NCBI GenBank assembly: GCA_002405525.1
Contig: DHLY01000098.1
Span: 1 to 44,328 of the forward strand
Direction: 5' to 3'
From: Proteobacteria bacterium UBA4656
GTDB lineage: Bacteria; Pseudomonadota; Gammaproteobacteria; Xanthomonadales; Ahniellaceae
Length of the DNA stretch: 44,328 bases
The notes under the pieces are model-generated. The model searched no databases, was not told the DNA's origin, and saw nothing but the letters and a program-made list of their open reading frames with translations. Position numbers and translations under genes: made by a program. Of the stretch, positions 17,096 to 36,978 are shown in pieces (positions within the stretch are counted from its first letter, which is position 1; every line of letters begins with the position of its first letter).

Positions 17096-17123
17096 TTGAC
17101 ATAATATGTATTAGACGCATAAC
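17096..17123 (+). promoter_or_regulatory. Promoter and possible operator of the SLA dehydrogenase gene
   Basis: A perfect -35 TTGACA (17096-17101) lies 16 bases from a -10-like CATAAC (17118-17123). The spacer holds an AT-rich imperfect inverted repeat (TATG at 17105-17108 and CATA at 17118-17121) containing GTATTAGAC, which resembles half of a HutC-type GntR operator. A bound repressor here would block the polymerase. The nearest GntR gene is at 25358. Promoter assignment is fair; operator assignment is speculative. Confidence 0.5.
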
Positions 17124-17204
17124 GGCACTGCGCCGTCGCAACGCCCCCAACAATCCCCGCGCAACGGTCGAACACGGCCGACCCCGCACCGACCATTGCC
17201 AGCC

Positions 17205-18692
17205 ATGGAACACCGCAACAATCCACTTCTCGCGCTGCAGACTCCGGACGTGTTGCAGACCCACGCGCTGTTGGACGGCACATGGATCGCCGGCCCCGCG
17301 AGGTTCGACGTGATCGATCCGGCGACGGGAGAAAAACTCGCCGACGTCCCGCTGCTCGGTGCATCCGAAGCGGATGCCGCGATCGCAGCCGCCGCAATCG
17401 CCCTGCCGCCTTGGCGGGCCAGGACGGCCAGGGACCGGGCCGGGATCCTCCGGCGCTGGTTCGACCTGCTACAAGCGCACGCCGACGACCTCGCTCGGAT
17501 CATGACCGCCGAACAAGGCAAGCCGCTGGCCGAGGCGCGCGCCGAGGTCACTTTCGGCGCGAGTTTCATCGAATGGTTCGCCGAGGAGGCGCGCCGCGTC
17601 TACGGCGAGACCATCCCGACCAACGATCCGAACAAGCGCTACCTCGTCGTCCGGCAGCCGATCGGGATCTGCGCGGCGATTACCCCCTGGAATTTCCCGA
17701 TTGCGATGATCACCCGCAAGGTCGCGCCCGCGCTCGCTGCCGGCTGCACCGTGGTGGTCAAGCCCGCCGAGGCCACGCCCCTGTGCGCGCTGGCTTTGGC
17801 CAGACTCGCCCACCAGGCGGGTTTGCCCGCGGGCGTGCTCAATGTCCTGACCTCGGACGCGAGCGGCTCGGTGGCGATCGGCAAGGCCCTGTGCGCCAGC
17901 CCGCTGGTGCGCCACCTCTCCTTCACCGGCTCGACCGAGGTCGGTCGCCTGCTCGCGGCGCAATGCGCGCCGAGCGTGAAGAAGTTGAGCCTCGAACTGG
18001 GCGGCAACGCACCCTACATAGTTTTCGACGATGCCGACCTCGACAGCGCGGTCGAGGGCGCGATGGTCAGCAAGTACCGCAACGCCGGACAGACCTGCGT
18101 CTGCGCGAACCGCTTCCTCGTGCAGGCGGGGGTCTACGAGGCCTTCGTCGAGCGGCTGGCGGCCAAGGCGCGCGACATCCGGCTCGGTACCGGCTTCGAG
18201 CCCGGGGTGGCCCAGGGCCCGCTGATCGACGACGACGCGGTCGCGAAGGTCGAGTCCCACGTCGCCGATGCTCTCGCCAAGGGCGCACGTTTGCTCGCTG
18301 GCGGTCGCCGTGCGAATGCGGTCGGTCCGCGCTTCTTCATGCCGACCGTGCTGGCCGACGTCACGCCGGAGATGCGTTGCGCTCGCGAGGAAACCTTCGG
18401 CCCGGTCGCCGCGGTATTCCGCTTCGAGACCGAAGCAGACGCCATCGCACTGGCCAACGCCACCGAGTCGGGGCTTGCCAGCTACCTGTACAGCCGCGAC
18501 ATCGGGCGTATCTTCCGCGTCGCCGAGGCGCTCGAGTACGGCATGGTCGGCGTCAACACCGGGCTGGTGTCGACCGCCGAAGTGCCGTTCGGCGGTGTCA
18601 AGCAGTCGGGCCTGGGCCGCGAAGGCGCGCGCCAGGGAATCGACGAGTATGTCGAGACCAAGTACCTCTGCCTCGGCGACATCCTGAAATGA
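17205..18692 (+). CDS. GabD-like aldehyde dehydrogenase, predicted sulfolactaldehyde dehydrogenase
   Basis: A 495-residue NAD(P)-dependent aldehyde dehydrogenase very like E. coli GabD: catalytic Cys298 in RNAGQTCVCANR, base Glu264 in LELGGNAP, ITPWNFPIAMITRK cofactor segment and the PFGGVKQSGLGREG end. GabD-type enzymes normally oxidise succinate semialdehyde, but the sulfolactaldehyde dehydrogenase of sulfoglycolysis (SlaB of Pseudomonas putida SQ1) belongs to the same group, and succinate semialdehyde and SLA are similar acidic aldehydes. Beside genes for SQ breakdown and sulfolactate use, oxidation of SLA to (S)-sulfolactate is the likelier role. It has its own promoter and converges with glpK. 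A housekeeping GabD role remains possible. The ATG at 17205 gives the standard N-terminus. Confidence 0.8.
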   Translation: MEHRNNPLLALQTPDVLQTHALLDGTWIAGPARFDVIDPATGEKLADVPLLGASEADAAIAAAAIALPPWRARTARDRAGILRRWFDLLQAHADDLARIMTAEQGKPLAEARAEVTFGASFIEWFAEEARRVYGETIPTNDPNKRYLVVRQPIGICAAITPWNFPIAMITRKVAPALAAGCTVVVKPAEATPLCALALARLAHQAGLPAGVLNVLTSDASGSVAIGKALCASPLVRHLSFTGSTEVGRLLAAQCAPSVKKLSLELGGNAPYIVFDDADLDSAVEGAMVSKYRNAGQTCVCANRFLVQAGVYEAFVERLAAKARDIRLGTGFEPGVAQGPLIDDDAVAKVESHVADALAKGARLLAGGRRANAVGPRFFMPTVLADVTPEMRCAREETFGPVAAVFRFETEADAIALANATESGLASYLYSRDIGRIFRVAEALEYGMVGVNTGLVSTAEVPFGGVKQSGLGREGARQGIDEYVETKYLCLGDILK

Positions 18693-18720: not shown

Positions 18721-20205
18721 TCATTCCTCGCTCCACCCCCGCGCCCGCGCCACTGCGCGCGACCATTGGCGCATCGCCTCCCCTGCCTGGTCGCGGCCGA
18801 TGCCGGGCTCGAAGACCCGTTCCGCCTGCCAGGCCCCCGCCAGATCCTCGGCCGTCGACCAGAAGCCCGTGGCGAGGCCAGCCAGATAGGCCGCACCGAG
18901 CGCGGTGGTCTCGGTGACCCGCGGCCGGACCACCGGCACGCCCAGCAAGTCGGCCTGGAACTGCATCAGCAGATCGTTGGCGGTCGCCCCGCCGTCGACC
19001 CGCAGTTCGATCAGCGGCTGGCCGGCGTCAGCCTGCATCGCGGCCAGCAGTTCGGCGCTCTGGAAGGCGATCGATTCCAGCGCCGCGCGGGCTAGATGGC
19101 CACGATGGCTGCCGCGCGACAGGCCGAGAATGGTGCCGCGCGCATAGGCGTCCCAGTGCGGGCTGCCGAGCCCGGTGAACGCCGGCACCAGGAACACGCC
19201 GCCGTTGTCCGGCACGCTGGCCGCGAGCGCCTCGACATCGGCAGAGCGCTCGATCAGTCCCAGTCCGTCGCGCAGCCACTGCACCACCGCGCCGCCCACG
19301 AACACGCTGCCTTCGAGCGCGTACGAGCGTGACCCGACGTCCCACGCCACCGTCGTCAGCAAGCGGTGGCGCGAACGCAGCGGCCGCGAGCCGGTGTTCA
19401 TCAGCATGAAGCATCCGGTGCCGTAGGTGTTCTTGGCCATTCCGGGCCGGAAGCAGGTCTGGCCGAACAGCGCGGCCTGCTGGTCGCCCGCGATCCCGGT
19501 CAAGGGAACCTCGTGACCCTCGATCCGCGCCACCAGGCCCGTGTCGGCGGAGGATGGCAGCACCCGCGGCAGGCAGGCCGCAGGAACGTCGAACAGCGCC
19601 AGCATCTCCGGATCCCAGCCGCCTTCCAGGTTCATCAGCAGCGTGCGGCTGGCGTTGCTGGCATCGGTCACGTGCGCCTGTCCGCCGGTCAGTTTCCACG
19701 CCAGCCAACTGTCGACGGTGCCGAAACACAGTTCGCCGCGCTCCGCCCTGGCGCGCGCGTCCGGCACATGGTCCAGCAGCCAGGCCAGCTTGGTGCCGGA
19801 GAAGTAGGGATCGATCAGCAGGCCGGTCCGCTGCGCGACCCGCGCCTCGTGCCCTGCCGTGCGCAACGCGTCGCAGCGTTCCGCCGTGCGTCGATCCTGC
19901 CAGACGATGGCGGGCGCCACCGGATGCCCGGTGTCCCGCTCCCACAACACCACCGTCTCGCGCTGGTTGGTGATGCCGACCGCCGCCAGATCGCCCGCCG
20001 CGACTCCCGCGCGGGCAAGCACCTCCGCGATGGTCACCGCCTGCGAGACCCAAATCTCGTTGGCGTCGTGTTCGACCCAGCCTGGCCGGGGGAAGTGTTG
20101 CGTGAACTCGCGCTGCGCGACGGCGACGATCCCGCCGCGCCAATCGAACAGGATCGAGCGCGAACTGGTGGTGCCCTGGTCCAGGGCGAGGACGTAGCGC
20201 GACAT
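18721..20205 (-). CDS. glpK: Glycerol kinase
   Basis: Phosphorylates glycerol to sn-glycerol-3-phosphate in the cytoplasm. The 494-residue protein opens [18 protein letters not shown], the phosphate-binding part of the FGGY sugar kinase fold, and has [14 protein letters not shown], the [14 protein letters not shown] segment and the [19 protein letters not shown] adenosine-binding region. The ATG at 20205 follows a GGGAG ribosome-binding site; the open frame further upstream is not coding. It is the last gene of a leftward operon that starts with suyA, 20 bp behind glpD. With desulfonation genes in the same operon, its glycerol probably comes from sulfoquinovosyl glycerol. Confidence 0.95.
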
Positions 20206-20225: not shown

Positions 20226-21719
20226 TTACGCCACCGCCGGCCGGCGCGCGGCGATCCAACGGTCGAGGATGGCCGGCGCCTCCGGGCCGAGATGCAGTCC
20301 CAGCTTGCTGCGCCGCCAGAGGATGTCGTCGGCGGTGCACGCCCACTCCTCGCGTAACAGATAGTCGATCTCGGTCGCGTACAGGCCGGGCAACACCGCA
20401 TCACCAAGATCCGCCATCGCCTTCGCGGCGCCAAGGATCCTCTCCATGCGGGTGCCGTAGGCTCGCGCCAGCCGCAAACACAAGGCGGATGGCAGCCACG
20501 GCCAGCGCGCTGCGGTTTCGCGCTGGAAACGATCGAAGTCCGCGCCCGGCAGGTCGCCGCCCGGCAGCGGCACGCCCGCCGTCCAGGCCGTCCGGTTCCC
20601 ACCGAGCGCCGTCGCGACGCGATCGACCGCCGCTTCGGCCAGTACCCGATAAGTGGTCAGCTTGCCGCCGAACACGGACAGCGCCGGCGCGCCTTGCTCA
20701 TCCAGGTCGAGCACGTAGTCCCGGGTCACGGCCGAAGGATCGTCGGAATCATCGTCGAGCAAGGGGCGCAGGCCGGCGAAACTCCACACCACGTCCGCCG
20801 CCGCGATGCCCCTGGCGAAGTAACGATTTGCCATCATGCACAGGTATTCGATCTCGGCACCGCTGATCCGCGCCGCGCCGGGATCGCCCCCGTGTTCGAC
20901 GTCGGTGGTGCCGAGCAGCGTGAAGTCGCCCTCGTAGGGCAGCGCGAACACGATCCGCCGGTCCGGGGCCTGAAAGATGTAGGCATGGTCATGATCGAAC
21001 AGGCGCCGCACCACGATGTGGCTGCCCTTCACGAGGCGCACCCTGTGCCGGGCAGCCAGCGGCGAGCGGCGGTGCAGGAAGTCGGCCGCCCAAGGCCCCG
21101 CGGCGTTGACCAGCGCCCGAGCGCCGACCGCGGTGCGTCCGCTCGGACCCGCCAGCAACGCGTGCCAGCCGCCGTCGCGCGTCACCGCCTCGCAGCGGGT
21201 GCGGGTCAGCACCGTGGCGCCGCGCTCGCGCGCGTCGATCGCGTTGAGCACGACCAGTCGTGCGTCGTCGGCCCATCCATCCGAGTATTCGAAACCGCGT
21301 CGGAACGCAGGTCTCAGCGCCCTGCCCGCTGGGTGGCTGCGCAGGTCGACGGCGCGCGACCCGGCCAGGCGGTCGCGACGCGCAAGGTGGTCGTAGAAGA
21401 ACAGTCCGACGCGGATCATCCATGCCGGCCGCAGGTGCGCATCGTGCGGCATCACGAAGCGCATCGGCCACAGGATATGCGGGGCAGCAGCGATCAGGCG
21501 CTCTCGCTCGGCGAGCGCCTTGCGCACCAGACGGAACTCTCGATGCTCGAGGTAGCGAAGGCCGCCGTGGATCAGCTTGGTACTGGCCGACGAGGTGTGG
21601 CCCGCCAGGTCGTCCTGCTCGACCAGCAGCACGGACAAACCACGGCCGGCCGCATCACGGGCGATGCCGGCGCCATTGATTCCGCCACCGACCACCAGCA
21701 GGTCGTAATCGCCGTTCAT
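20226..21719 (-). CDS. glpD: Aerobic glycerol-3-phosphate dehydrogenase
   Basis: Membrane-associated flavoenzyme that oxidises glycerol-3-phosphate to dihydroxyacetone phosphate and passes electrons to quinone. The 497-residue protein has the FAD-binding start [22 protein letters not shown], then [45 protein letters not shown] and [11 protein letters not shown], all close to E. coli GlpD. The ATG at 21719 matches the E. coli N-terminus; an in-frame ATG at 21776 overlaps the slcC stop and would add 19 residues. It feeds glycerol carbon into DHAP, the same product the predicted SFP aldolase makes. Confidence 0.95.
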
Positions 21720-21772: not shown

Positions 21773-22699
21773 TCATCCGGCAAGGCGTGCGGCCACCGCC
21801 CGCGCGGTGACGTCGCTGACCCGCACGTTGGATTCGACCGTCACGCCGGCGATGTGGGGCGTCAGCAGGAGGTTCGGTATTCCGGCGAAGGCTTTGCCGC
21901 CGGCGGGATCGACCGGTTCGCACTCGAACACATCGAGCGCCGCTCCGCCCAGGCGCCCGGACCGCAGGGCGTCGACGAGGGCCGCTTCGTCCACGATTCC
22001 ACCTCGCGCCGCGTTGACGAGGATCGCATCCGGCTTCATTCGCGCCAGCGCGTCGGCGTCGACCAGCCGCGTGGTCTGCGGCGTCAGCGGGACATGCAGG
22101 CTGACCACGTCGCTGGTCGCAAGCAGGTTGGCCAGGGTCAGGTTGTCGACGCCGGCCCACGCGGGATGCGCGGCGGGCAGGAATGGGTCGTGCGCGGCAA
22201 TCGTCATTCCGAGCGCGCGGGCGCGGCTCGCGGTCTCGCGCGCGATGGCGCCGAAGCCGACCAGGCCGAGGCGCTTGCCATGGGCCTCGCGTCCCATCAG
22301 GCGCTGGCGCGGCCACTGCCCGGCAACGACCGCGGCGCTCGCGAACCAGGCGCCGCGCAGCAGCAGCAGCGCGGCCGTGACGACGTACTCCGCGACCGAA
22401 AGGTCATTTGCGCCGGTGGCGGGGAACACGTCGATCCGGCGCGACCGGCACGCCTCCACGTCGATGTTGTCGAGGCCGACGCCGAGGCGTCCGACCACCG
22501 CCAGCGCGGGGGCCTGGTCGAGCAACGGACCGCGCACCTGGGTGCGATTGCGCACGATCAGGCCCCGCGCGCCGGCCAGCGCCGCACGCAGCGCGTCGGG
22601 CGAGTCGACCAGCGTCGGGTCGTAGCGCACATCGAAGCCCGACAAATGCGCGCGGATGGCGGCCTCGTCCATGAATTCGGTGATCACGATGTCTGCCAT
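21773..22699 (-). CDS. slcC: D-2-hydroxyacid dehydrogenase, predicted (S)-sulfolactate dehydrogenase
   Basis: A 308-residue NAD-dependent dehydrogenase of the D-isomer 2-hydroxyacid family: substrate domain first, a Rossmann domain with LGLVGFGAIA near 144-153, and catalytic Arg232 (NAARGG), Glu261 (ECEP) and His282 (TPHIAG). The N-terminus VITEFMDEAA resembles known SlcC proteins, which oxidise (S)-sulfolactate to sulfopyruvate. Together with the ComC-like gene next to it and SuyAB, it forms the two-enzyme inversion route described in Chromohalobacter salexigens, where (S)-sulfolactate becomes (R)-sulfolactate. The operon context makes a general hydroxyacid role less likely. The gap to comC is 35 bp. 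Confidence 0.85.
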   Translation of the reverse strand: MADIVITEFMDEAAIRAHLSGFDVRYDPTLVDSPDALRAALAGARGLIVRNRTQVRGPLLDQAPALAVVGRLGVGLDNIDVEACRSRRIDVFPATGANDLSVAEYVVTAALLLLRGAWFASAAVVAGQWPRQRLMGREAHGKRLGLVGFGAIARETASRARALGMTIAAHDPFLPAAHPAWAGVDNLTLANLLATSDVVSLHVPLTPQTTRLVDADALARMKPDAILVNAARGGIVDEAALVDALRSGRLGGAALDVFECEPVDPAGGKAFAGIPNLLLTPHIAGVTVESNVRVSDVTARAVAARLAG

Positions 22700-22734: not shown

Positions 22735-23748
22735 TCAGGCCGCGGGCGCCAGGTTGCGGATTTCGTCGTGCAGTGCGCGCGGAACGCTGATGCCGTCACG
22801 CATGGCGCGCGCACGCAGCGCCAAGCGTCGCTCGCCCGGAAGACGTACGTCCGGGTCGGCGGCGATCATTTCCAACAGAGTGCCCATGCGGGCGATGTAG
22901 GCGCCGCCGGACAGCGCCCGGGCATCGATCGCGATCAGCAACTGGCCGACGCCGGGCGGCCCGCCTCGGTCGTCGAAGAAGGAGCTGGCTTCCCAGGCCC
23001 AGCTGGAACCGGTCAGTGCGGCGGCGAGGACTTCGACCATCAGCGCCAGCGCCGCGCCCTTGGGCCCGCCGATCGGCAGCAGCGTACCGGCCAGCGCCGC
23101 GCCGGGATCGGTGGTGGGCTGCCCCGCCGCATCCAGCGCCCAGCCCTCGGGAATGGCGCTGCCCGACTTCTGAGCGGCGACGATCCTGCCGCGCGCGGCG
23201 ACTGACAGCGCGAGATCCACCACCAGCGGCGGATGCGCACCCGGCAGCGGAGCGGCGAAGGCGAGCGGATTAGTACCCAGCATCGGCCGCCGGCCGCCCC
23301 ATGCCGCCATGGCCTTGGGGGTGTTGCCCACCACGAGCGCGACCAGCCCCTCGACGGCCAGCCGTTCGGCGTGTGCACCGGCCTGGCCGAAGTGGTGCGA
23401 GCGGTGCAGTGCGGCCACCGCGATACCGCACTCCCGCGCCAGGGGCGCCAGCGCCACCAGCGCGGCGTCGATCGCCGGATAGGCGAGGCCATGGCCGGCG
23501 TCGACGCGCAGCGCCGCCGTGGCGACGCGTTCAACGCGCGGCATGACGCGCCCGTCGACCTTGCCGCAGCGAACGTGCAGAGCGTAGGACGGCACACGCG
23601 ACAGCCCGTGCCCAGCCTGCCCGTCCGCTTCAGCCGTGACCAGCGCACGCGCAGTCGCCAGCGCACCGGTGGCGGACGCGCCACTAGCCTCGAGCGCGGC
23701 GGCGCACAGCGCTTCGGCATCGCGCAGGCTGAGCCGGACCGTGTCCAC
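22735..23748 (-). CDS. comC: Ldh2-family oxidoreductase, predicted (R)-sulfolactate dehydrogenase
   Basis: A ~337-residue member of the malate/L-lactate dehydrogenase (Ldh2) family, distinct in fold from classical Rossmann dehydrogenases. Visible family segments are GQAGHGLSRVPSYA, VAALHRSHHFGQAGAHAERLA, GRRPMLGTNPLAFAAP and IGGPKGAALALMVE. ComC proteins of this family interconvert sulfopyruvate and (R)-sulfolactate with NAD(P)H. Here it would reduce the sulfopyruvate made by SlcC, giving the isomer that SuyAB cleaves. The open frame extends to 24066 inside suyB, but the N-terminal part of that frame is antisense-like low-complexity sequence; a GTG at 23748, 14 bp behind suyB, gives a normal-length protein. 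Confidence 0.85.
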   Translation of the reverse strand: MDTVRLSLRDAEALCAAALEASGASATGALATARALVTAEADGQAGHGLSRVPSYALHVRCGKVDGRVMPRVERVATAALRVDAGHGLAYPAIDAALVALAPLARECGIAVAALHRSHHFGQAGAHAERLAVEGLVALVVGNTPKAMAAWGGRRPMLGTNPLAFAAPLPGAHPPLVVDLALSVAARGRIVAAQKSGSAIPEGWALDAAGQPTTDPGAALAGTLLPIGGPKGAALALMVEVLAAALTGSSWAWEASSFFDDRGGPPGVGQLLIAIDARALSGGAYIARMGTLLEMIAADPDVRLPGERRLALRARAMRDGISVPRALHDEIRNLAPAA

Positions 23749-23762: not shown

Positions 23763-24935
23763 TCAGGCGCTGCGATACAGCTTGGTCATCACGAACTCGC
23801 GATGGCCGAGCGCCTCGGCGGCGGTGAGTCGGCCATTGGCCGTGCGAACGATCATGTCGATCAGCAAGTCGCCCGCTTCGTCGATCGTCATCTCGCGGCG
23901 AACGATCCCGGAGACATCGACATCGACGTGCTCGGACATGACGCGGACTGTGCGCGGATTCCCGGTGACCTTGATCACCGGCATGATGGGGTTGCCGATC
24001 ACGTTGCCCTGGCCGGTGGGGAAGATGTGCACCACGTAACCCGCCGCCGCCTGCAGCGTGCAGCACTCGGCCGCGGCCGAGGAGGTATCCATGAAGTACA
24101 GCCCGGGCCCTGCAGACGGCGCCTCGGCGGGCTGCAGCACGTCGATGAAACTGACCTTCTTGCCGATCTTCTCGAGGTTGCCGAGCGCTTTCTCCTCGAT
24201 CGTGGTCAGGCCGCCGGCGATGTTGCCCTTGGTCGGCTGGCTGTCGGAAAGGTCGGAGGTCTTGTGCGCCTCGATCACGTCATCCTGGTAGGCCTTCCAG
24301 GTCCGCATGAACTTGTCGCGCACCGCCGGCGAGGCGGCGCGCGCGGCCGCCAGGTGCTCGGCGCCGGTCAGTTCGGAGGTCTCGCCGAAGCAGCCGTAAA
24401 GACCGGCGGGAACCAGCTTGTCGTACATGTTGCCGACCGTCGGACAAGAGGCGAGCCCGGTGGTCGTGTCGGATTCACCGCACTTCGCGGCGATCCACAG
24501 TTCGGCCAGATCGCACTCCTCCCGAACCTGCTCGGTCGCCCAGTGCACGAACTCCTTGGCCTTGCGCGACGCCGCGGCGACGGTGGCGATATCGCCGTTA
24601 CCTTCGATCCAGAAACCGGCCACCGGCTTGCCGGTCGCGGCGATCCCGTCGACGATCCGGCGCGTCCAGCCCGGTTCGATACCGATCACCACGCAGGCGG
24701 CGACGTTGGGGTTGGCGCCGGTGCCGATCATGGTGCGGAAATGCAGTTCCAGGTCCTCGCCGAACTGCAGGCGACCATACGCGTGCGGCAGCGCGATCGT
24801 TCCCTGGATATGCGCGGCGACGGCCTCGCAGGCCGCGTTCGAGATGTCGTCGACCGGCAGGATCGCGACGTAGTTGCGGACGCCTACGCGACCGTTCCCG
24901 CGCCGGTAGGCCCAGATCTTCCTGCGCATGCTCAT
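23763..24935 (-). CDS. suyB: (R)-sulfolactate sulfo-lyase, large subunit
   Basis: With SuyA this enzyme splits (R)-sulfolactate into pyruvate and sulfite, the carbon-sulfur bond cleavage of the pathway. The 390-residue protein belongs to the UxaA/altronate dehydratase C-terminal family and has [21 protein letters not shown], the long run [39 protein letters not shown] and [22 protein letters not shown]. Altronate dehydratase would be a single ~500-residue protein or lie among uronate genes; here the domain is split from its small SAF partner and lies beside slcC and comC, as in established suyAB clusters. The spacing to suyA is 15 bp. Confidence 0.92.
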
Positions 24936-24950: not shown

Positions 24951-25238
24951 CTACCAGCGCTTGGTCTTGAGATTGTGGACATGAACATGCTCGCCGCGCT
25001 TCGCCGGCGCCACCATGCGCCCGATGTCCTGCCCGTACTTGATGACGGTATCGCCGGGCGCGAGGTCGCGCAGCGCGACCTTGTGGCCGATCGGCACGTC
25101 CATCGACACCGGCATCCGGAAATCGGTGTTGTCGTGGGTCACCACGCAGAGCATCTCGGTGCCGGCTGCGAGGCCCTCGACCACCACGACTCCCACGTTG
25201 TCGGCCGGATCGTGGACCAGAAGATGGGGGATGCTCAC
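24951..25238 (-). CDS. suyA: (R)-sulfolactate sulfo-lyase, small subunit
   Basis: A 95-residue SAF-domain protein (FRMPVSMDVPIGHKVALRDLAPGD, then YGQDIGRMVAPAKRGEHVHVHN) matching the small subunit of SuyAB and the N-terminal domain of altronate dehydratase. It is needed with SuyB for desulfonation. The frame is open to 25265, but the GTG at 25238 is preceded by a strong AAGGAGG, fixing the start. It is the first gene of the leftward operon suyA-suyB-comC-slcC-glpD-glpK and is divergent from the GntR regulator gene. Confidence 0.92.
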   Translation of the reverse strand: MSIPHLLVHDPADNVGVVVVEGLAAGTEMLCVVTHDNTDFRMPVSMDVPIGHKVALRDLAPGDTVIKYGQDIGRMVAPAKRGEHVHVHNLKTKRW

Positions 25239-25251: not shown

Positions 25252-25267
25252 CGGCAGTCCTGCAACT

Positions 25268-25288
25268 CTTGTAGAACACATCATACAG
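25268..25288. promoter_or_regulatory. Candidate divergent control site between suyA and the GntR gene
   Basis: The only AT-rich stretch in the 119-bp gap contains TGTA (25270-25273) and TACA (25284-25287) as a 4-bp inverted repeat around ten bases. On the minus strand, TATGAT (complement of 25280-25285) matches a -10 element for the suyA operon, so a repressor at this palindrome would overlap the promoter. The regulator encoded next door is the natural candidate. The site and the promoter are predictions only. Confidence 0.4.
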
Positions 25289-28053: not shown

Positions 28054-28054
28054 C

Positions 28055-29464
28055 ATGGCACTGACCTTCGGCGTCGCGGCCCTCGCGAGACCGACCTTCG
28101 ACGTCCCTTTCGCCGAGGAGACCAAGGCGCGCGCCTTCGCGGCGCTGGACGCCGCCGGCATCCGCACCGTCGGCCCGCGCGAACTGCTGTTCGACCGCGC
28201 CGCAGCCGAACGGGCCCTCACCGAGATCGCCGCCGCCGGCGAAATCGACCTGATGCTCATCCTGCAGGTCACCTTCACCGACGCCACGATGACGGTCGAG
28301 ATCGCGCGGGGCGCGCAGGTGCCGCTGGCGATCTGGGCGCTTCCCGAGCCCCGCGCCGGCGGACGTCTGCGGCTGAATGCGTATTGCGGGCTCAACCTGG
28401 CCGCGCATGCGCTCGGCCGCGCCGGCGTGCCGCACGGGTGGCTGTACGCCGATCCGGACACGACCGGGATCGGCGACAGCCTGCGCGCACTGGCGCGGAC
28501 TGCGGCAAGGACTGCAACGCTGGCGCGACCGCCGGTCGCAGCCGGCGTCGAGGTCGACCACGCCGCGGCCGAGCGTGCGCTGGCGAAGCTGGAGGGCGGC
28601 AAGGTCGCCGTGGTCGGCAAGCACCCCGACGGCTTCGACACCTGCGAGTACGACGGCGGCCTGCTGCAACGCCTTGCCGGCATCGAGGTGGAGACGATCC
28701 AGCTGGCGCAGCTGTTCGAAAAGGCGCGGGCCGCCGACGCGGGTCGCGTCGCCGCCGTGCGCGCCGCTGCCGCGACCGGACTGTCCGGGCTTGATGCGGT
28801 CGACCAGCAGCAACTCGACCGCTCGTTCCGCGTCTTCTGCGCGCTGCAGGACGTGCAGCGCGAAACCGGCGCGCAGGGCATGGCCGTGCGCTGCTGGCCG
28901 GAGATGTTCACCGAGTATGGCTGCGCCGCCTGCGGGCCGATGGCGATGATGAACGGGCAGCGTGTGCCGTCGGCCTGCGAAGCGGACGTCAACGGCTCGA
29001 TCACTCAGCTGCTCATGCAGACTCTCGCCGACGAGCCGGCATGGATGGCCGACCTGGTGGACATCGACGGGAGGGACGACAGCGCGGTGTTCTGGCACTG
29101 CGGACTGGCGCCGCTGTCGATGCGCGACCCCGAAGCTGAGGCGCAGGCCACCATCCATACCAACCGCAGAATGCCGCTCCTGCACCAGTTCCCGCTCCGA
29201 CCCGGGCGCATCACCCTGGCGCGCCTGTCGCGGTCGCGCAACGAGGTCAAGCTGATGATCGCCGGCGCGGAGGTGGTGCGCGCTCCGATGGCCTTCACCG
29301 GCTGCTCCGGCACCGTCCGCTTCGACCGCCCGGCCGGCGAGGTCTGCCGGCGCATCATCGAGGAGGGCCTCGAGCACCATTTCGCCCTGGCCTACGGCGA
29401 CCATCGCCCTGCCCTGCGCGGCGTCGCGCAGCGCTGGAACCTGCCGCTGCTGGAATTGGCGTGA
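28055..29464 (+). CDS. L-fucose/L-arabinose isomerase-family protein, predicted sulfoquinovose isomerase
   Basis: A 469-residue protein of the fucose/arabinose isomerase superfamily, metal-dependent aldose-ketose isomerases of the cytoplasm. Visible parts are the N-terminal Rossmann-like domain with LMLILQVTFTDATM, the metal-site region RCWPEMFTEYGCAACGPMAMMN followed by PSACEADVNGSITQLLM, and the C-terminal domain with HCGLAPLSM and HHFALAYGDHR. E. coli uses the unrelated YihS for SQ to SF; a sulfo-EMP variant (often called sulfo-EMP2) is, as I recall, reported to use a fucose-isomerase-like enzyme, which fits the kinase and aldolase next door. It starts right behind the aldolase stop and overlaps the GH31 start by 4 bp, so the genes form one operon. 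Confidence 0.75.
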   Translation: MALTFGVAALARPTFDVPFAEETKARAFAALDAAGIRTVGPRELLFDRAAAERALTEIAAAGEIDLMLILQVTFTDATMTVEIARGAQVPLAIWALPEPRAGGRLRLNAYCGLNLAAHALGRAGVPHGWLYADPDTTGIGDSLRALARTAARTATLARPPVAAGVEVDHAAAERALAKLEGGKVAVVGKHPDGFDTCEYDGGLLQRLAGIEVETIQLAQLFEKARAADAGRVAAVRAAAATGLSGLDAVDQQQLDRSFRVFCALQDVQRETGAQGMAVRCWPEMFTEYGCAACGPMAMMNGQRVPSACEADVNGSITQLLMQTLADEPAWMADLVDIDGRDDSAVFWHCGLAPLSMRDPEAEAQATIHTNRRMPLLHQFPLRPGRITLARLSRSRNEVKLMIAGAEVVRAPMAFTGCSGTVRFDRPAGEVCRRIIEEGLEHHFALAYGDHRPALRGVAQRWNLPLLELA

Positions 29465-31491
29465 ACGGCCTTCCGACCGGCATCGAACCTCCCGACTGGG
29501 GCCGCATCCCCGCGCTTGCGGTGGACGGCGTGGCGCAGGCGCAGGCCGACGGCAGCGTGCGGGTGCCGACCACTGCGGGCGACCTCACGATCACGCTGCA
29601 TGCGTTCGGCGCGCGCCTGCGGCTGGGTCCGGCGGCGCGCGACTACGGGATCCTGGTCGCGGATCCGGCATCGCTGCCGGTCGAAATCGAAATCGCAGCC
29701 GACCGCACGCGGATCAGCGCTGGCGAGCTTGCGTTGATCCTCGAGCACGCGCCGCTGGCCTTCATCCTGGACCACGGCAGGCGGCGCGTGCAGTCGTCCC
29801 CGAGCGACGCGCACTTTGTGCGCCGGCATCGCATCCCGCCGTTTGCGCGCCTCGAACATGGCTGGCTGGTCAGCCTCGAACTGGGTCACGCCACGCGCGT
29901 CTATGGTCTGGGCGAGAAGTGGGGCCGGCTCGATCACCGCGGGGAATTGATCCGCTCCTACAACCACGACGCCCTGGGCGTGAACTCGGAACGCAGCTAC
30001 AAGAACGCGCCCTTCGCCTGGAGCCCGGACGGCTGGGGCGTGTTCGCCCACACCGCCGCGGCGGTGACCCACGGCGTCGGCTTCGCGCCCTGGTCACAGC
30101 GGGCCTATGTGCTGGAGGTGGACAGCCCGTCCCTGGACCTGTTCCTGCTCGGTGGCCGCGACGGCGCGCAGCAGCTCGCCCAATACACCGCGCTGACCGG
30201 CCGCGCTCCGGTCCCGCCGCGCTGGAGCCTGGGGCTTATCCTGTCGAAGGCGTACTACCGGGACGCTGACGAGATCCTCGCGGTGGCGCGCGAGGTTCGC
30301 CGGCGGGGGATGCCGTGCGAGACGATCACCTTCGACGGCCGCGCCTGGCAGGACACCGAGACCCGCTTCGCCTTCGAATGGTGCCCACGGCGCTACCCGG
30401 ACCCGAAGCCGGTGCTCGATGAACTGAAGGCGCTCGCTTTCCGGATCTGCGTCTGGGAGTACCCGCTGGTCTCGGTGAAGAATCCCCTGTTCAACGAGCT
30501 GGCCGCGCGCGGCTGGCTGATCCGGGACGATCGCAGCGGCGACGCCTTTCGCTACCAGTGGGACCTCGAGCCGTTCGGGCCGGTCCTGACGCCGTTGCCC
30601 GAGTCCGGGCTGCTCGACTTCACCCACCCGGAGGCTTATGCCTGGTGGCGCGATCGCCACCGTGTTCTGTTCGAGGCCGGCGTCGACATGATCAAGGCCG
30701 ACTTCGGCGAGCAGATCGGGCCCCACATGGTGGCAAGTGACGGTTCCTCCGGCAGCGAACTGCACAACGCGTATGCGCTGCTTTACAACCGCTGCGTGTA
30801 CGAGGCGGCCGAACGCTACGCGCGCGACGGGGCGTTCCTGTTCAGCCGTTCGGCCTGGGCCGGCTCGCAGCGTTACCCCGCGCAATGGGGCGGCGATCCG
30901 CAGGCCGACTGGGGCGGACTGGCGGCGAGCATCCGCGGCGCGCTGTCGTGGGGCATGACCGGCGGGCCCTACTTCGCCACCGATGTCGGCGGCTTCTATG
31001 CCGACCGGCGCGACCCCGAGCTCTACGTCCGTTGGGCGCAGGCCGCGGTGTTCGCCGCCCATATGCGCCTGCACGGCATCGGGCCGCGCGAACCCTGGAG
31101 TTACGGGGCGGAAGCGGAATCCGCGGTCGACCATGCACTGCAGTTGCGCGAGCGCCTGCTGCCCTACATCGAGCGTTGCATGGCAGATGCGCACGCGACC
31201 GGTTTGCCCGTACAGCGCGCGATGGTCCTCGCCTGTCCGGACGAACCCGCGTCCTGGGCCTTTGAGAACCAGTTCTTCCTGGGGGCTGACCTGCTGGTCG
31301 CGCCGTGCCTTGCGCCGGGTGGCGCGGTGGAGGTCTATCTGCCGACGGGCGACTGGCAGCGCTTTCCGGACGGGGACTCGTTCGCCGGTGGGCGCAGCCA
31401 CCGACTTCTACTGGGACTGTCCGAGATCGCCGCGTTCACGCGCGCCGGCAGCCCTCCGCTTCCGATCGCGGCACAGGCAGTGTGGGCTTGA
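29461..31491 (+). CDS. GH31 alpha-glycosidase, YicI-like, predicted sulfoquinovosidase
   Basis: A 676-residue GH31 enzyme with no signal peptide, so cytoplasmic. It has the N-terminal beta-sandwich, the catalytic barrel with nucleophile Asp414 (MIKADFGEQ) and acid/base Asp479 (RYPAQWGGDP), and C-terminal sheets. Overall it resembles the alpha-xylosidase YicI (KTDFGE, HWGGD). It lacks the QDWSGIR motif whose Arg and Trp define known GH31 sulfoquinovosidases (YihQ). The sugar-binding strand, FDCFW in YicI, reads FDGRAW (291-296) here, placing Arg294 near the -1 site. In this operon the likely substrate is sulfoquinovosyl glycerol or another SQ alpha-glycoside; ordinary alpha-glucoside or xyloside remains possible. 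It starts with GTG overlapping the isomerase stop. Confidence 0.85.
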   Translation: MNGLPTGIEPPDWGRIPALAVDGVAQAQADGSVRVPTTAGDLTITLHAFGARLRLGPAARDYGILVADPASLPVEIEIAADRTRISAGELALILEHAPLAFILDHGRRRVQSSPSDAHFVRRHRIPPFARLEHGWLVSLELGHATRVYGLGEKWGRLDHRGELIRSYNHDALGVNSERSYKNAPFAWSPDGWGVFAHTAAAVTHGVGFAPWSQRAYVLEVDSPSLDLFLLGGRDGAQQLAQYTALTGRAPVPPRWSLGLILSKAYYRDADEILAVAREVRRRGMPCETITFDGRAWQDTETRFAFEWCPRRYPDPKPVLDELKALAFRICVWEYPLVSVKNPLFNELAARGWLIRDDRSGDAFRYQWDLEPFGPVLTPLPESGLLDFTHPEAYAWWRDRHRVLFEAGVDMIKADFGEQIGPHMVASDGSSGSELHNAYALLYNRCVYEAAERYARDGAFLFSRSAWAGSQRYPAQWGGDPQADWGGLAASIRGALSWGMTGGPYFATDVGGFYADRRDPELYVRWAQAAVFAAHMRLHGIGPREPWSYGAEAESAVDHALQLRERLLPYIERCMADAHATGLPVQRAMVLACPDEPASWAFENQFFLGADLLVAPCLAPGGAVEVYLPTGDWQRFPDGDSFAGGRSHRLLLGLSEIAAFTRAGSPPLPIAAQAVWA

Positions 31492-31581: not shown

Positions 31582-31647
31582 GCGTGTGTTAGTGTCCAAA
31601 CGCCATCGTCCAACAGGGCATGGCACCAACCTGGGGAGGTGCATCCA

Positions 31648-33987
31648 ATGAACCAATCGAAGCTCAACCTTCTGCCGCGTCATCGGCTGGCAGTCGCCAT
31701 GATCGCCGCGCTGGCCAGTGCCCAAGCGTCCGCCCAGCAGCCCGCCGCCGAAGACGAGCAGGCGACCCTGCTGGACACGCTGGTGGTCACCGCGCAGAAA
31801 CGCGAACAGTCCTTGCAGGAAGTGCCGGTGGCGCTGACCTACGTCGACGGCAGCCAGATCGAGACCCTCGGCGGCTACAACGTGGAGCAGCTCAAGCTGC
31901 TGGTGCCATCGCTGAACATCCGCAAGACCAACACCGCACTCAACCAGGCTTTGTTCCTGCGCGGCGTCGGCACCATCAACTTCGCGATCGCAGCCCAGCC
32001 CAGCGTCGCCTCCGTCCTCGACGGCGTGGTGCTGTCCTCGGCCGGCGAAGCGTTCGGCGATCTGTACGACATCGAGCGCATCGAGGTGCTGCGCGGCCCG
32101 CAGGGGACGCTGTTCGGGAAGAATGCATCCGCCGGCGTGGTCAACATCGTGTCGAAGATGCCGACCGACGACTTCGGCGCGTATTTCGACTTGGGCTGGT
32201 TCGAGGACAACGAAAAACGTATCCGAGCGGCCGTCAACGCGCCGTTCTCGCCGACGCTGCGCTCGCGCACCACGGTCACGTGGGGTGACTTCGACGGCTA
32301 CATCGACAACCTGAGTTCGACGCCCGCCGGCGGCAAGCTCAACGGCTACGACCGCAAGGGCATCCGTACCGTCTGGCAAGCTGATCCGTCCGACAGCACC
32401 CAGCTCACCTTCATCGCCGACTACCGGGATTCCGACGACAACTGCTGCGTCGAGGTGATCGGCACCGCGCCGACCGGCGCCAACGGCCCCGCGCTCAACT
32501 CCCTGTTGCGCACCAACTTCCGCGGCGACGCGACGCGCGAAGTGCGGCAGAACCTGGAGATGCGCTCGACCGAGGAAGCCTGGGGGCTTTCGCTGCAGGC
32601 GGACGTGAGCCTCGAGAATTCGACGCTGACTTCGATCACGGCGTACCGCACCTGGGACACCACCGAGTTCCGCGAAGGCGACTGGCTCGACACGCCGGCG
32701 GCCTACGTCGGCAATGCCTTCGCGCAATTGCATGATTTCGGCCCGCAGGAAACCGACACGTTCTCCCAGGAGCTTCGCCTCGCCGGGTCGACCGACATCG
32801 TCGACTATGTCCTCGGAGCCTTCTACTCCAAGACCGACGCCGAGCGGTTCTTCCGCCGCGACACCATCGTCTGCCGCTCGACCACATCGGCTCCGGACTC
32901 GACCGGGCTGGCACCCTGCCGGCCCGGCAGCTCGGTGGTCGAAACACCCTCGGCCAACGCCCTGTTCGGCGCCGACTTCAAGAACCTCGCGGTATTCGCC
33001 GACGGCACCTTCCCGGTGACCGACAGCTGGAACCTGATCGGCGGGCTGCGCTGGACGAAGGACGAGATCAGCTACCAGCACAGGTACAACTTCTCGCCGA
33101 TTCCGGGCCCGGGCATCCGCACCCAGGCCGGCGGAGGCACGGCGTTCCTGAGCGGCGAGGACGACTCGACCAACGTGTCCGGTCGCGCGGGCCTGCAGTG
33201 GGACGTGAACGACGACTTCATGAGCTACCTGACCTACTCGCGTGGCTACAAGGGTCCGGCCTTCAACGTGTTCTTCAACATGGGCCCGAACAACACCCCG
33301 GTGATCGACGCCGAGACTGCCGATTCGTACGAACTCGGGTTCAAGTCGACGCTGGGCGACGGCCGTTACATCGTCAGCGGCGCCGCCTTCTCCGCGACCT
33401 ACGACAACTTCCAGGCCAACAACTTCCTGTTCCTCAACGGCGCGCTGATCACCACCCTGACCAACGCCGGCGAGGTCAAGACCGAGGGCCTCGAACTGGA
33501 GATCCTCGCCCGGCCTACCGAAGCCCTGTCGATCAGCGGCGGCGTCGCCTACACCGATGCGCGGGTGGAGAGCTTCCCGGTTCCGGCGACCGCGCCGCCA
33601 GGCACGTTGCCCACGGTGCGCAGCGGCACCCAGCTCCCGCTGGCGCCCAAGCTCAAGGCCTCGCTCGCCGGCCAGTATCAGTTCGATTTCGACTCCTTCA
33701 ACTTCTCGCCGGGTTTGGTCGTCGCCTACCAGGATGAGCAGTGGTCCGACCTCAACGAGCCCGCGGCCCTTCGAATTCCAGGCTACACCACGGTCGATCT
33801 GACCTTCACCTTCGCCGACAAGGACGACCGTTATCGGCTGACGCTGATCGGGCGCAACGTCACCGACCAGCAGTTCGTGGCGCTGCGCACTGCAGGCGGG
33901 CCGGGCGGCGTGCCGCGCCTGCAGATCCCCCGCGATGCGGATCGCTACTTCGGGCTGCAGTTCCGGATGAACTTCGGCGCGCCGTAA
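31648..33987 (+). CDS. TonB-dependent outer-membrane receptor
   Basis: A 779-residue outer-membrane transporter. It has a signal peptide (about 1-30, cut after ASAQ), a TonB box region LLDTLVVTAQKREQ, a plug domain (about 50-170, with ERIEVLRGPQGTLFGKNASAGVVNI) and a 22-strand-type barrel ending in the aromatic YFGLQFRMNFGAP. The ribosome-binding site GGGGAGGT fixes the ATG at 31648. It is related to the broad group of xanthomonad and sphingomonad receptors for plant or algal compounds rather than to a known siderophore receptor. Its place between the GH31 gene and the TRAP transporter suggests uptake of sulfoquinovosyl glycerol or SQ across the outer membrane. A strong hairpin follows it. 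Confidence 0.9.
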   Translation: MNQSKLNLLPRHRLAVAMIAALASAQASAQQPAAEDEQATLLDTLVVTAQKREQSLQEVPVALTYVDGSQIETLGGYNVEQLKLLVPSLNIRKTNTALNQALFLRGVGTINFAIAAQPSVASVLDGVVLSSAGEAFGDLYDIERIEVLRGPQGTLFGKNASAGVVNIVSKMPTDDFGAYFDLGWFEDNEKRIRAAVNAPFSPTLRSRTTVTWGDFDGYIDNLSSTPAGGKLNGYDRKGIRTVWQADPSDSTQLTFIADYRDSDDNCCVEVIGTAPTGANGPALNSLLRTNFRGDATREVRQNLEMRSTEEAWGLSLQADVSLENSTLTSITAYRTWDTTEFREGDWLDTPAAYVGNAFAQLHDFGPQETDTFSQELRLAGSTDIVDYVLGAFYSKTDAERFFRRDTIVCRSTTSAPDSTGLAPCRPGSSVVETPSANALFGADFKNLAVFADGTFPVTDSWNLIGGLRWTKDEISYQHRYNFSPIPGPGIRTQAGGGTAFLSGEDDSTNVSGRAGLQWDVNDDFMSYLTYSRGYKGPAFNVFFNMGPNNTPVIDAETADSYELGFKSTLGDGRYIVSGAAFSATYDNFQANNFLFLNGALITTLTNAGEVKTEGLELEILARPTEALSISGGVAYTDARVESFPVPATAPPGTLPTVRSGTQLPLAPKLKASLAGQYQFDFDSFNFSPGLVVAYQDEQWSDLNEPAALRIPGYTTVDLTFTFADKDDRYRLTLIGRNVTDQQFVALRTAGGPGGVPRLQIPRDADRYFGLQFRMNFGAP

Positions 33988-34623: not shown

Positions 34624-34628
34624 CGCGC

Positions 34629-35918: not shown

Positions 35919-35928
35919 GTCGCCCGCG

Positions 35929-36978
35929 ATGAACGGCACCCTGGTCGCCCGCGCCCTGCTGGTCCTGATCCTGCTCGGCGGCCTCGCCGGCATCGTGGCC
36001 TCGCGAGCCGAGCGCACCGAACTGACGATCCGCATCGCCTTCCTCGCCTCGAAGGACGACGAGGACTATGTCGGCGCCCTCGCCTTCAAGCAGACCGTCG
36101 AGGGGCTGCTGCAGGGGCGGGCCACGGTGAAGATCTATCCGTCCGGACAGTTCTGCGGCAGCGAACGCGAATGCATCGAAAGCATGCAGAGCGGCGTTCT
36201 CGAGATGCACCAGACCACGGTCGGCGGGCTCGCGGCGCTGTATGGCGCGGTGCAGGTGCTCGATCTGCCCTACTCCTTCCGCGATGATGCGGTCGTCGAG
36301 TGCGTGGTCGACGGCCCTATCGTGAGGGCGATCGGCGACGCGATCCTCGCCGACGGCCTGGGCCTGCGGCTGATGGCGGTGGGCAACACCGGTGGCTGGC
36401 GCAGTTTCGGCACCACGCGGCAGCCGGTTGCATCGGCCGACGAACTGGCCGGCTTGCGTATACGCACCCTCCCCTCGGCCCTCGAACAGCAGATGGTTCG
36501 CGACCTTGGCGCGTCGCCGATGGCCCTGCCTTGGTCGGAGGTCTACAGCGCCCTCAGCGCCGGGCTGCTGGACGGCATCAAGAACAGCGCGCAGGACATC
36601 GTCGGCATGAAGCTCGACGATCACGTGCGGCATCTTTTCCTCGATCGGCACAGCTACATGGCGGCGCTGTGGTGGTATTCGGAGAAACAGTGGCAGGCGC
36701 TGCCGGCCGATGCGCAGCATGCCGTCCGCGAGGGCTTTCGCGCACTGGCGACGGCGACGCGCAAGGCGGCGAGCGATCGCGAACGCCCGGCGATGGAAGC
36801 CTTCGAACGCCGCGGCGGCAGGGTGACGGTCGCCACCCCGATCCAGCGCGACGAGTTGCGGCGACGCACTGCCAGCCTGCGCGACTGGTACCAGGCGCGA
36901 TTCGGGGACGCCTGGCTGAGACAGCTCGACGCCGAGATCGCGCGTTGCGAGGCTGCTCACCCTACCGACCAACCCTGA
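35929..36978 (+). CDS. dctP: TRAP transporter periplasmic solute-binding protein, DctP family
   Basis: Captures the substrate in the periplasm and hands it to DctQM. The 349-residue protein has an N-terminal hydrophobic signal or anchor (ALLVLILLGGLAGIVA), then the binding domain with YPSGQFCGSERECIESMQSGVLEM, the ELAGLRIRTLPS segment whose Arg binds the substrate's acidic group in TRAP proteins, and SALSAGLLDGIKNSAQDI. Two cysteines (in FCGSEREC) may form a disulfide. In this locus the acidic group bound is predicted to be a sulfonate. Substrate could be SQ, its glycoside, or sulfolactate; the sequence alone does not decide. Confidence 0.92.
   Translation: MNGTLVARALLVLILLGGLAGIVASRAERTELTIRIAFLASKDDEDYVGALAFKQTVEGLLQGRATVKIYPSGQFCGSERECIESMQSGVLEMHQTTVGGLAALYGAVQVLDLPYSFRDDAVVECVVDGPIVRAIGDAILADGLGLRLMAVGNTGGWRSFGTTRQPVASADELAGLRIRTLPSALEQQMVRDLGASPMALPWSEVYSALSAGLLDGIKNSAQDIVGMKLDDHVRHLFLDRHSYMAALWWYSEKQWQALPADAQHAVREGFRALATATRKAASDRERPAMEAFERRGGRVTVATPIQRDELRRRTASLRDWYQARFGDAWLRQLDAEIARCEAAHPTDQP

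What the first reader, a model, noticed from the sequence alone, without database searches (positions are those of the whole stretch)
17096..36978. A single locus encoding a complete sulfoquinovose-to-pyruvate-plus-sulfite pathway
Directly visible are homologues for every step: outer- and inner-membrane uptake, GH31 glycosidase, fucose-type isomerase, YihV-like kinase, LacD/YihT-like aldolase, GabD-like dehydrogenase, slcC, comC, suyA and suyB, plus glpK and glpD. Known sulfoglycolysis of the Embden-Meyerhof type usually ends with excretion of DHPS, and sulfolactate desulfonation is usually found in a second organism. Here an EMP-type upper half and a Suy-type lower half are joined in one gene cluster of a gammaproteobacterium. 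I know of no well-described case of this combination, though I could not search for one. Net inference: SQ gives DHAP, pyruvate and sulfite, with full use of all six carbons.
Basis: partly seen in the sequence, partly recalled or inferred. Interest (0 to 1): 0.95.

Follow-up and report, generated by a model that had tools for sequence, protein, structure and literature searches.

The report
Single-locus sulfoquinovose-to-sulfite pathway
This 20-kb bacterial gene cluster encodes relatives of all the enzymes predicted to take the plant sulfo-sugar sulfoquinovose down to pyruvate, a triose phosphate and sulfite inside one cell, and the same kind of two-arm gene set recurs in other proteobacteria, so complete breakdown would not need the two partner species usually described.

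Summary
No activity was measured, but comparative evidence that both arms form one pathway is strong. Of 21 relatives with full flanks and isomerase identity of at least 50%, SuyB lies in the locus in 18. A palindrome, TCTTATATAAGA, lies between suyA and gntR in 28 of 28 relatives with at most one mismatch. Exact copies outside the fetched loci marked an aldolase in one genome and suyAB on another contig in a second. The window's own copy is degraded (3 mismatches). The GH31 lacks two of YihQ's three sulfonate residues, yet it alternates with GH188-like sulfoquinovosidases (21, 50, never both), and its group recurs in TauD/aldo-keto-reductase clusters that look like sulfo-ASDO. Precedents: an actinobacterial cluster (PMC11465081), TAL plus SuyAB (PMC9594981), sulfofucose plus SuyAB (PMC12421959). 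So: a new variant of extended sulfoglycolysis, whose new points are the shared operator and a predicted GH31 sulfoquinovosidase clade.

The parts
17196..18692 (+). gabD/slaB-like aldehyde dehydrogenase, predicted sulfolactaldehyde dehydrogenase (likely start 17205)
   Evidence: Aldedh 570 bits; SSADH family, above one cut-off and below another; 581 bits to RlGabD 8c54. WNF, Arg and Arg-x5-Cys positions given for RlGabD are kept, but E. coli SSADH keeps them too, so they do not discriminate.
18721..20205 (-). glpK, glycerol kinase
   Evidence: 748 bits, above NCBIfam cut-off
20226..21719 (-). glpD, glycerol-3-phosphate dehydrogenase
   Evidence: 750 bits, above NCBIfam cut-off
21773..22699 (-). 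slcC-like 2-hydroxyacid dehydrogenase, predicted (S)-sulfolactate dehydrogenase
   Evidence: nearest NCBIfam models are phosphoglycerate dehydrogenases, below cut-off; 68% to the hydroxyacid dehydrogenase of the Paracoccus versutus suy region
22735..23748 (-). comC-like Ldh_2 protein, predicted sulfopyruvate/(R)-sulfolactate dehydrogenase
   Evidence: Ldh_2 321 bits; best NCBIfam model is L-sulfolactate dehydrogenase, below its cut-off (183 of 500); 56% to the P. versutus Ldh protein, over a stretch cut by the end of the fetched region
23763..24935 (-). suyB, sulfolactate sulfo-lyase large subunit
   Evidence: GD_AH domains; 75% P. versutus, 67% Cupriavidus pinatubonensis beside hpsN/hpsO
24951..25238 (-). 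suyA, sulfolactate sulfo-lyase small subunit (GTG start)
   Evidence: 71% P. versutus, 51% C. pinatubonensis
25267..25278 (.). degraded copy of the TCTTATATAAGA operator between the two divergent arms (TCTTGTAGAACA, 3 mismatches)
   Evidence: aligned with the site of 28 relatives; sister L088 also degraded
25325..26077 (+). GntR/UTRA regulator (likely start 25358)
   Evidence: GntR 71 bits, UTRA 89 bits
26103..27002 (+). PfkB kinase, predicted sulfofructose kinase
   Evidence: best PDB sequence match is YihV 7ag6 (204 bits); 42% to YihV; K27, N109, R138 of YihV kept
27007..28053 (+). LacD-family class I aldolase, predicted sulfofructose-1-phosphate aldolase
   Evidence: DeoC/LacD; lysine of DLFKLES aligned with that of YihT's DLYKVEM
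28055..29464 (+). SftI/SqvD-like aldose-ketose isomerase, predicted sulfoquinovose isomerase
   Evidence: only NCBIfam match is sulfoquinovose isomerase SftI (256 bits, cut-off 700); model pLDDT 85, L-arabinose/L-fucose isomerase fold
29461..31491 (+). GH31 glycosidase of a non-YihQ group, predicted sulfoquinovosidase
31639..33987 (+). TonB-dependent receptor
   Evidence: TonB barrel 154 bits, plug 55 bits
34045..34623 (+). TRAP small permease DctQ
   Evidence: 82 bits
34629..35918 (+). TRAP large permease DctM
   Evidence: 392 bits on the longer frame 33741-35918; start from the sequence
35929..36978 (+). TRAP solute-binding protein DctP
   Evidence: 169 bits; second-best PDB sequence match is an isethionate-binding DctP
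36997..37458 (+). LMW-PTP-like protein with Asp in place of the catalytic Cys; conserved last gene of the unit
   Evidence: LMWPc 100 bits; VDAGNYCRSP

Best explanation
The locus encodes relatives of every enzyme of a predicted pathway that would take up sulfoquinovosyl glycerol or sulfoquinovose, run it through an EMP-type upper arm to DHAP and sulfolactaldehyde, and then desulfonate the C3 fragment to pyruvate and sulfite in the same cell. Likely steps: TonB receptor and TRAP transporter import the substrate; GH31 releases sulfoquinovose and glycerol; GlpK and GlpD turn the glycerol into DHAP. The FucI-fold isomerase makes sulfofructose; the YihV-like kinase makes sulfofructose-1-phosphate; the LacD-type aldolase yields DHAP and (S)-sulfolactaldehyde. 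GabD oxidises this to (S)-sulfolactate; SlcC and ComC invert it through sulfopyruvate to (R)-sulfolactate; SuyAB splits that into pyruvate and sulfite. A GntR/UTRA regulator with a palindromic operator is predicted to control both arms together. Shown here: gene content, family assignments, conservation, the operator and its placing in relatives. Inferred: every substrate, every reaction direction, and induction.
For: Gene content. Kinase: YihV is the best PDB sequence match; K27, N109 and R138 of YihV, which I recall as its sulfonate-binding residues, are kept in the window and in 66, 39 and 57 of the 66 aligned kinases, window included. Co-localisation: of 46 loci with isomerase identity >=50%, 21 have full 10-kb flanks; SuyB is in 18, kinase 21, aldolase 17, ComC 19, SlcC 19 of 21 (the best 80 of 132 loci were kept). 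Operator: <=1 mismatch in all 28 loci where suyA and gntR were both found (18 exact, 10 with one); dinucleotide shuffles of the 29 gaps, the window's included, reach that in 1 of 2900. In 12 whole genomes (about 49 Mb) the exact 12-mer stands at 9 places in 7 genomes, against 1 place for the reversed control; all 9 lie at genes of the cluster or regulon. They include a site about 30 bp before an aldolase just outside the fetched Woeseiaceae locus (10 kb past the isomerase) and one about 30 bp before suyAB on another contig in Mesorhizobium. Isomerase and SuyB protein distances correlate over 26 clusters (r=0.86, 0 of 2000 permutations). Sulfoquinovose as substrate: of 80 isomerase loci 21 carry the GH31, 50 a GH188-like protein, none both, 9 neither; 46 of the 50 keep an Arg-x-Pro-x-Leu-x-Lys motif like that of GH188. 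The Aliihoeflea protein matches SqgA 8qc3/8qc2 at 428/424 bits, a Woeseia one at 190/197 bits. The GH31 group also occurs in 4 genomes beside TauD and aldo-keto reductase genes (4 of 4) with the same operator.
Against: No activity or expression data. The GH31 has Q but neither R nor W of YihQ's recalled Q-R-W sulfonate residues. SlcC-, ComC- and isomerase matches fall below NCBIfam cut-offs. The aldolase resembles LacD more than YihT. The GabD residues do not separate it from succinate-semialdehyde dehydrogenase, and gabD is within the locus in only 5 of 80 relatives; longer stretches of two gamma relatives showed none beside glpK. The window's own operator is degraded (3 mismatches; 18 of 2000 shuffles do as well), and the sister genome has no copy at <=1 mismatch. 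Five of 12 genomes have no exact copy, and at one mismatch the motif is not enriched genome-wide (37 places against 42 for the control, 13 genomes). No mutarotase, sulfite exporter or sulfite oxidase is among the genes of the unit; the sister has a PF03601 exporter between glpD and slcC. Isomerase homologues under 50% identity are mostly without SuyB (1 of 27 loci of >=19 kb has it). Two full loci with close isomerases (L018, L038) show no SuyB.
Confidence: 0.82

Rival explanations
1. The sugar is a different 6-sulfo-hexose, above all sulfofucose, taken through sulfotagatose by an EMP-like route; the Suy arm works as described.
For: The aldolase is nearest to the tagatose-bisphosphate aldolase family. 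A PfkB/LacD pair in one cluster with SlcC, ComC and SuyAB is reported in the sulfofucose degrader Paracoccus wurundjeri (PMC12421959, passages). The same operator precedes suyA and an ABC/SDR/MR_MLE/epimerase operon in Sinorhizobium mexicanum.
Against: In P. wurundjeri those two proteins were not raised on sulfofucose and the route was ED-like. The isomerase matches only the sulfoquinovose isomerase model. The GH31 alternates with GH188-like proteins, whose studied members are sulfoquinovosidases, and glpK/glpD fit a glycerol glycoside.
Confidence: 0.08
2. The two arms are neighbours but serve different substrates: a sugar operon (for example an alpha-xyloside or other neutral glycoside) and a separate sulfolactate operon.
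For: GH31 is nearest to YicI; SuyAB with a GntR (41%) and a one-mismatch operator occurs without a sugar arm in the 31-kb stretch of Paracoccus versutus that I saw.
Against: Both arms carry the same operator, also when suyAB is on another contig; arms co-occur in 18 of 21 full loci and their distances correlate; the GH31 group recurs in TauD/AKR clusters.
Confidence: 0.06
3. The pathway runs but in part: the GH31 acts on another alpha-glycoside and free sulfoquinovose is the real substrate, or sulfolactate is mostly exported as in Arthrobacter.
For: Two of YihQ's three residues are missing; Arthrobacter sulfo-EMP strains excrete sulfolactate (PMC8873060, passages).
Against: SlcC, ComC and SuyAB stand in the same divergon; GH31/GH188 exclusivity.
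Confidence: 0.1

Closest known systems
Actinobacterial GH188 'Y160' cluster (Actinobacteria bacterium IMCC26103; PMC11465081)
   Different: GH188 and ABC transporters instead of GH31, TonB and TRAP; no ComC, GlpK or GlpD named in the part read; reported only as clusters that could represent new pathways; another phylum
Extended sulfo-TAL with SuyAB in Thermotogae and Chloroflexi (PMC9594981, passages)
   Same: SqvD-type isomerase joined to SuyAB for full use of SQ carbon
   Different: transaldolase instead of kinase plus aldolase
Tandem sulfofucose ED / SlcC-ComC-SuyAB of Paracoccus wurundjeri (PMC12421959, passages)
   Same: same predicted SlcC/ComC/SuyAB arm in one cluster; sulfite released; authors call such coexistence unusual
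   Different: sulfofucose through an ED-like upper arm; no GabD-type SLA dehydrogenase found
Sulfo-EMP with SLA dehydrogenase in Arthrobacter (PMC8873060, passages)
   Same: kinase, YihT-type aldolase and GabD-like step
   Different: YihS-type isomerase; sulfolactate is excreted
Hybrid sulfo-EMP/EMP2 clusters (PMC9594981, PMC13372026, passages)
   Same: SqvD-type or SqiA-type enzymes mixed with Yih-type ones
   Different: end product DHPS in the cultured vibrio; no Suy arm described

Membership tests
Sulfo-EMP (Yih type) | YihS-type isomerase | tested here: not met
   no meaningful match to YihS (E 2.2); L-arabinose/L-fucose isomerase fold instead
Sulfo-EMP (Yih type) | PfkB sulfofructose kinase like YihV | tested here: met
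   42% over 295 residues; best PDB sequence match
Sulfo-EMP (Yih type) | class I DeoC/LacD SFP aldolase | tested here: met
   DeoC/LacD family with lysine aligned to YihT's; 28% to YihT
Sulfo-EMP2 | SqiK (PF00365) and SqiA (PF01116) | tested here: not met
   kinase is PF00294, aldolase PF01791
Sulfo-EMP2 / sulfo-TAL isomerase SqvD/SftI | FucI-type sulfoquinovose isomerase | tested here: inconclusive
   only match is SftI model, 256 bits against cut-off 700; fold agrees
Extended sulfoglycolysis with SuyAB | sulfoglycolytic arm plus SuyAB in one cluster | tested here: met
SuyAB sulfolactate sulfo-lyase | both subunits, close to those beside sulfonate-degradation genes | tested here: met
   SuyB/SuyA 75%/71% to P. 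versutus, 67%/51% to C. pinatubonensis
SlcC/ComC sulfolactate racemase pair | opposed stereospecificity on sulfolactate | not testable with these tools
   sequence and synteny only
GH31 sulfoquinovosidase of the YihQ type | Q288, R301, W304 sulfonate-binding residues (recalled; numbering read on the E. coli sequence) | tested here: not met
   Q, E and F at those columns in the window; own motif GRAWxDTxTRF instead
GH31 family | catalytic Asp pair | tested here: met
   D405 and D472 of YihQ kept in the window and in all 22 aligned locus sequences
SLA dehydrogenase (GabD/SlaB) | activity on sulfolactaldehyde | not testable with these tools
   family and residues agree but do not discriminate

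The most novel reading that the evidence does not exclude
A GntR/UTRA regulator family with the operator TCTTATATAAGA defines a sulfosugar-desulfonation regulon in Proteobacteria into which different upper arms plug: sulfoquinovose EMP plus Suy here, sulfofucose ED plus Suy in Sinorhizobium, TauD/aldo-keto-reductase sulfoquinovose clusters in gammaproteobacteria, and Suy alone in Paracoccus. Its GH31 members with the GRAWxDTxTRF loop are a second, independently evolved sulfonate-recognising sulfoquinovosidase clade within GH31.
Probability: 0.55. Interest if true: 0.82.

Novelty: new variant of a known kind. Interest (0 to 1): 0.68.

Why it matters
Sulfoquinovose turnover is usually described as a two-species relay. 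If the prediction holds, a set of mostly uncultured freshwater, soil and marine proteobacteria would mineralise it alone, with all six carbons used and sulfite released, and surveys that look only for YihS, YihQ or DHPS/sulfolactate export would miss them. The operator gives a cheap genomic marker of the regulon that already located an aldolase and a suyAB pair outside the fetched loci, and the GH31 group is a concrete enzyme prediction that one assay can test.

Tried and rejected
A plain YihQ-type GH31 was rejected. YihS-type isomerase and SqiK/SqiA enzymes were rejected. I first took the GH188-like hits of Woeseiaceae for unrelated Gfo/Idh/MocA proteins because L017:16959-17960 does not match SqgA best; that was the wrong protein. 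The hit itself, L017:20091-21311, does match SqgA best (8zn9 198, 8qc2 197, 8qc3 190 bits, next 78). A narrow motif pattern gave 43 of 50, a wider one 46 of 50, with L014, L018, L019 and L022 without. An island at the tRNA-Leu next door was considered: the longest exact match between the tRNA-Leu region and the 3' flank is 12 bases, so no att repeat is claimed. The identity of PDB 8tnf was not resolved. The paper on YihV/YihT sulfonate residues is not held, nor is the SqoD paper, so those residues are recalled and the TauD/AKR clusters are named sulfo-ASDO-like by family only. GH31 rows: L036's protein (41%) is not counted as GH31 and lacks the motif, L015 has one change. Foldseek rmsd values for the isomerase were poor (about 23 A), so the fold statement rests on VIA-align. 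One-mismatch operator counts over whole genomes were not informative. L094 and L095 were taken on the wrong side and gave nothing used.
Full report
What is there. The window is 44,328 bases at 70% GC. Two divergent gene runs meet at a GntR/UTRA gene. Leftward lie suyA, suyB, comC, slcC, glpD, glpK; rightward gntR, a PfkB kinase, a LacD-type aldolase, a fucose-isomerase-type isomerase, GH31, a TonB receptor, TRAP DctQ, DctM, DctP and an LMW-PTP-like gene; gabD faces glpK at the left end. Spacing is tight: kinase to aldolase 4 bases, aldolase to isomerase 1, isomerase and GH31 overlap by 4, comC to suyB 14, suyB to suyA 15. A sister Lysobacteraceae genome (G013) holds the same genes from gabD to the LMW-PTP on two contigs at about 82% DNA identity, with other flanks, and with a PF03601 exporter between glpD and slcC, where the window has only 53 bases. 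So the conserved unit is 17196-37458.

Relatives. An alignment of 19 isomerases, chosen from the 120 listed of 2434 homologues, found 132 genome loci, of which 80 were kept. The two-arm arrangement recurs in Steroidobacteraceae and other gammaproteobacteria, Woeseiaceae, Hyphomicrobiales, Parvularcula/Marinicaulis and SAR324. Of 46 loci with isomerase identity of at least 50%, 21 have full flanks: SuyB in 18, kinase 21, aldolase 17, ComC 19, SlcC 19. Among 27 loci of at least 19 kb with less similar isomerases, SuyB is in 1. Of the three full loci without SuyB, Mesorhizobium (L042) has it on another contig; L018 and L038 remain without. gabD is in the locus in 5 of 80. In 369 gammaproteobacterial genomes drawn around G009, which carries the cluster, the isomerase is in 2 and SuyB in 13; both isomerase genomes (G009, G189) have SuyB within 5 kb. 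Protein distances of isomerase and SuyB over 26 clusters correlate at r=0.86 (0 of 2000 permutations reach it); this shows shared history, not by itself shared function.

Operator. Aligning the suyA-gntR gaps showed the palindrome TCTTATATAAGA. In all 28 loci with both genes it is exact (18) or has one mismatch (10); 1 of 2900 dinucleotide shuffles does as well. Further copies, some with one or two mismatches, precede the kinase in alphaproteobacteria, the TonB receptor in gammaproteobacteria and gabD in others. In 12 whole genomes exact copies stand at 9 places in 7 genomes, the reversed control at 1; five genomes have none. All 9 lie at genes of the cluster or regulon: five suyA-gntR gaps, one upstream of gabD in Exilibacterium, one before the LMW-PTP/symporter genes at the edge of the Marinicaulis cluster, one about 30 bp before an aldolase (67% identical) that lies 10 kb past the isomerase in a Woeseiaceae genome, and one about 30 bp before suyAB (71/80%) on another contig in Mesorhizobium. 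At one mismatch, places (37) do not exceed the control (42) in 13 genomes. In the window the site has three mismatches (18 of 2000 shuffles reach that), and the sister's is degraded alike, so in this lineage the operator has drifted or the regulator has changed; I have not tested which.

Which sugar. Three lines point to sulfoquinovose. First, in alphaproteobacterial versions a Gfo/Idh/MocA protein follows the isomerase; the Aliihoeflea one matches the GH188 sulfoquinovosidases 8qc3/8qc2 at 428/424 bits and keeps Arg, Leu and Lys at the sulfonate-binding places given in PMC10755693 (passages) and PMC11465081. A Woeseia relative matches them at 190/197 bits. Over 80 loci GH31 is in 21, GH188-like in 50, both in 0, neither in 9; 46 of the 50 keep the motif Arg-x-Pro-x-Leu-x-Lys. 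Second, of 6 genomes with this GH31 among the 369, one is G009, the centre of the draw, with the two-arm cluster; four have it near a TauD dioxygenase and an aldo-keto reductase (4 of 4; Pfam on three of them, BLAST on the fourth), PF03601 exporter relatives in 3 of 4, and the same operator, exact at least once in each. The review PMC12890257 (passages) gives a dioxygenase (SqoD) and a reductase (SquF) as the sulfo-ASDO pathway, found in a marine gammaproteobacterium. The sixth, G028, has the GH31 beside TRAP genes and suyAB with glpD and glpK on another contig. The symporter of those clusters recurs in three isomerase loci (L012, L021, L023) at 65-77%. Third, the GH31s share GRAWxDTxTRF in the loop that carries YihQ's Q288, R301 and W304, in 26 of 28 sequences and in neither YihQ nor YicI. 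A sulfonate role of those arginines is inference; the GH31 model (pLDDT 82) is nearest to YicI by Foldseek, with sulfoquinovosidases further down the list.

Literature. Held library only. SuyAB joined to sulfo-TAL is described for Thermotogae and Chloroflexi (PMC9594981, passages). PMC11465081 (part 1 of 2 of the text) describes an actinobacterial cluster with SLA dehydrogenase, phosphoglycerate dehydrogenase, both Suy subunits, SFP aldolase, SF kinase and fucose isomerase, as possible new pathways. PMC12421959 (passages) shows a sulfofucose ED plus SlcC/ComC/SuyAB route and calls coexistence in one bacterium unusual. The 2026 review's table gives DHPS or sulfolactate as sulfo-EMP end products (PMC12890257, passages). 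In those listings and passages I saw no report of this operator, of a non-YihQ GH31 sulfoquinovosidase group, or of the EMP-plus-Suy cluster in Proteobacteria; the operator's letters were not themselves a search term, and subscription papers were not searched.

Verdict. The locus is real, conserved and best read as a complete sulfoquinovose-to-pyruvate-plus-sulfite pathway, with joint control predicted from the operator in relatives. It is a new variant of extended sulfoglycolysis rather than a new class. What remains open is every activity, the effector of the GntR, the fate of the sulfite, and the role of the LMW-PTP-like protein.

Noticed in passing
window 36997-37458; L001, L002, L003, L004, L007, L008, L009, L020, L026, L033, L040, L046, L089: A LMW-PTP-like gene is the last gene of the unit; the first Cys of the CxGNxCRSP loop (recalled as the catalytic one) is Asp in the window, in the 12 locus copies printed, and in L089. 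In L089 it stands behind an exact operator. Function unknown.
   Followed up: partly
L082 (Zymomonas mobilis ZM4 plasmid pZZM402, 128-11361) and L085 (record 32957-33853): A related cluster in Zymomonas mobilis: class II aldolase, aldose epimerase, isomerase 38%, GH188-like protein 48%, TonB receptor, SSADH 48% and a PfkB kinase 38% across the plasmid origin; looks like a hybrid sulfo-EMP locus.
   Followed up: partly
L084 10927 and 13590 (Sinorhizobium mexicanum pEmeITTGR7c): Exact TCTTATATAAGA copies precede suyA/gntR and an ABC transporter/SDR/MR_MLE/epimerase operon of the sulfofucose type.
   Followed up: partly
L060-L066, L068-L080 (SUP05/Thioglobus-type and uncultured marine alphaproteobacteria): More distant isomerases (33-35%) share a locus with GH188-like proteins that keep the sulfonate motif, and no SuyB, suggesting sulfoquinovose use by marine lineages.
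   Followed up: no
L059 13589-15725: The SAR324 locus has a PLP-dependent (PALP) enzyme and a PF03601 exporter between GH31 and slcC; a cysteate-lyase-like role of the first is only a guess.
   Followed up: no
window 16013-16466: tRNA-Gly, tRNA-Cys and tRNA-Leu lie just upstream of the unit, downstream of uvrC; the sister genome has a tRNA-Pro about 5 kb from gabD instead.
   Followed up: partly
window 39361-44326: GH13 amylase-family and GH92 genes follow the unit; the match to the sister ends before them.
   Followed up: no
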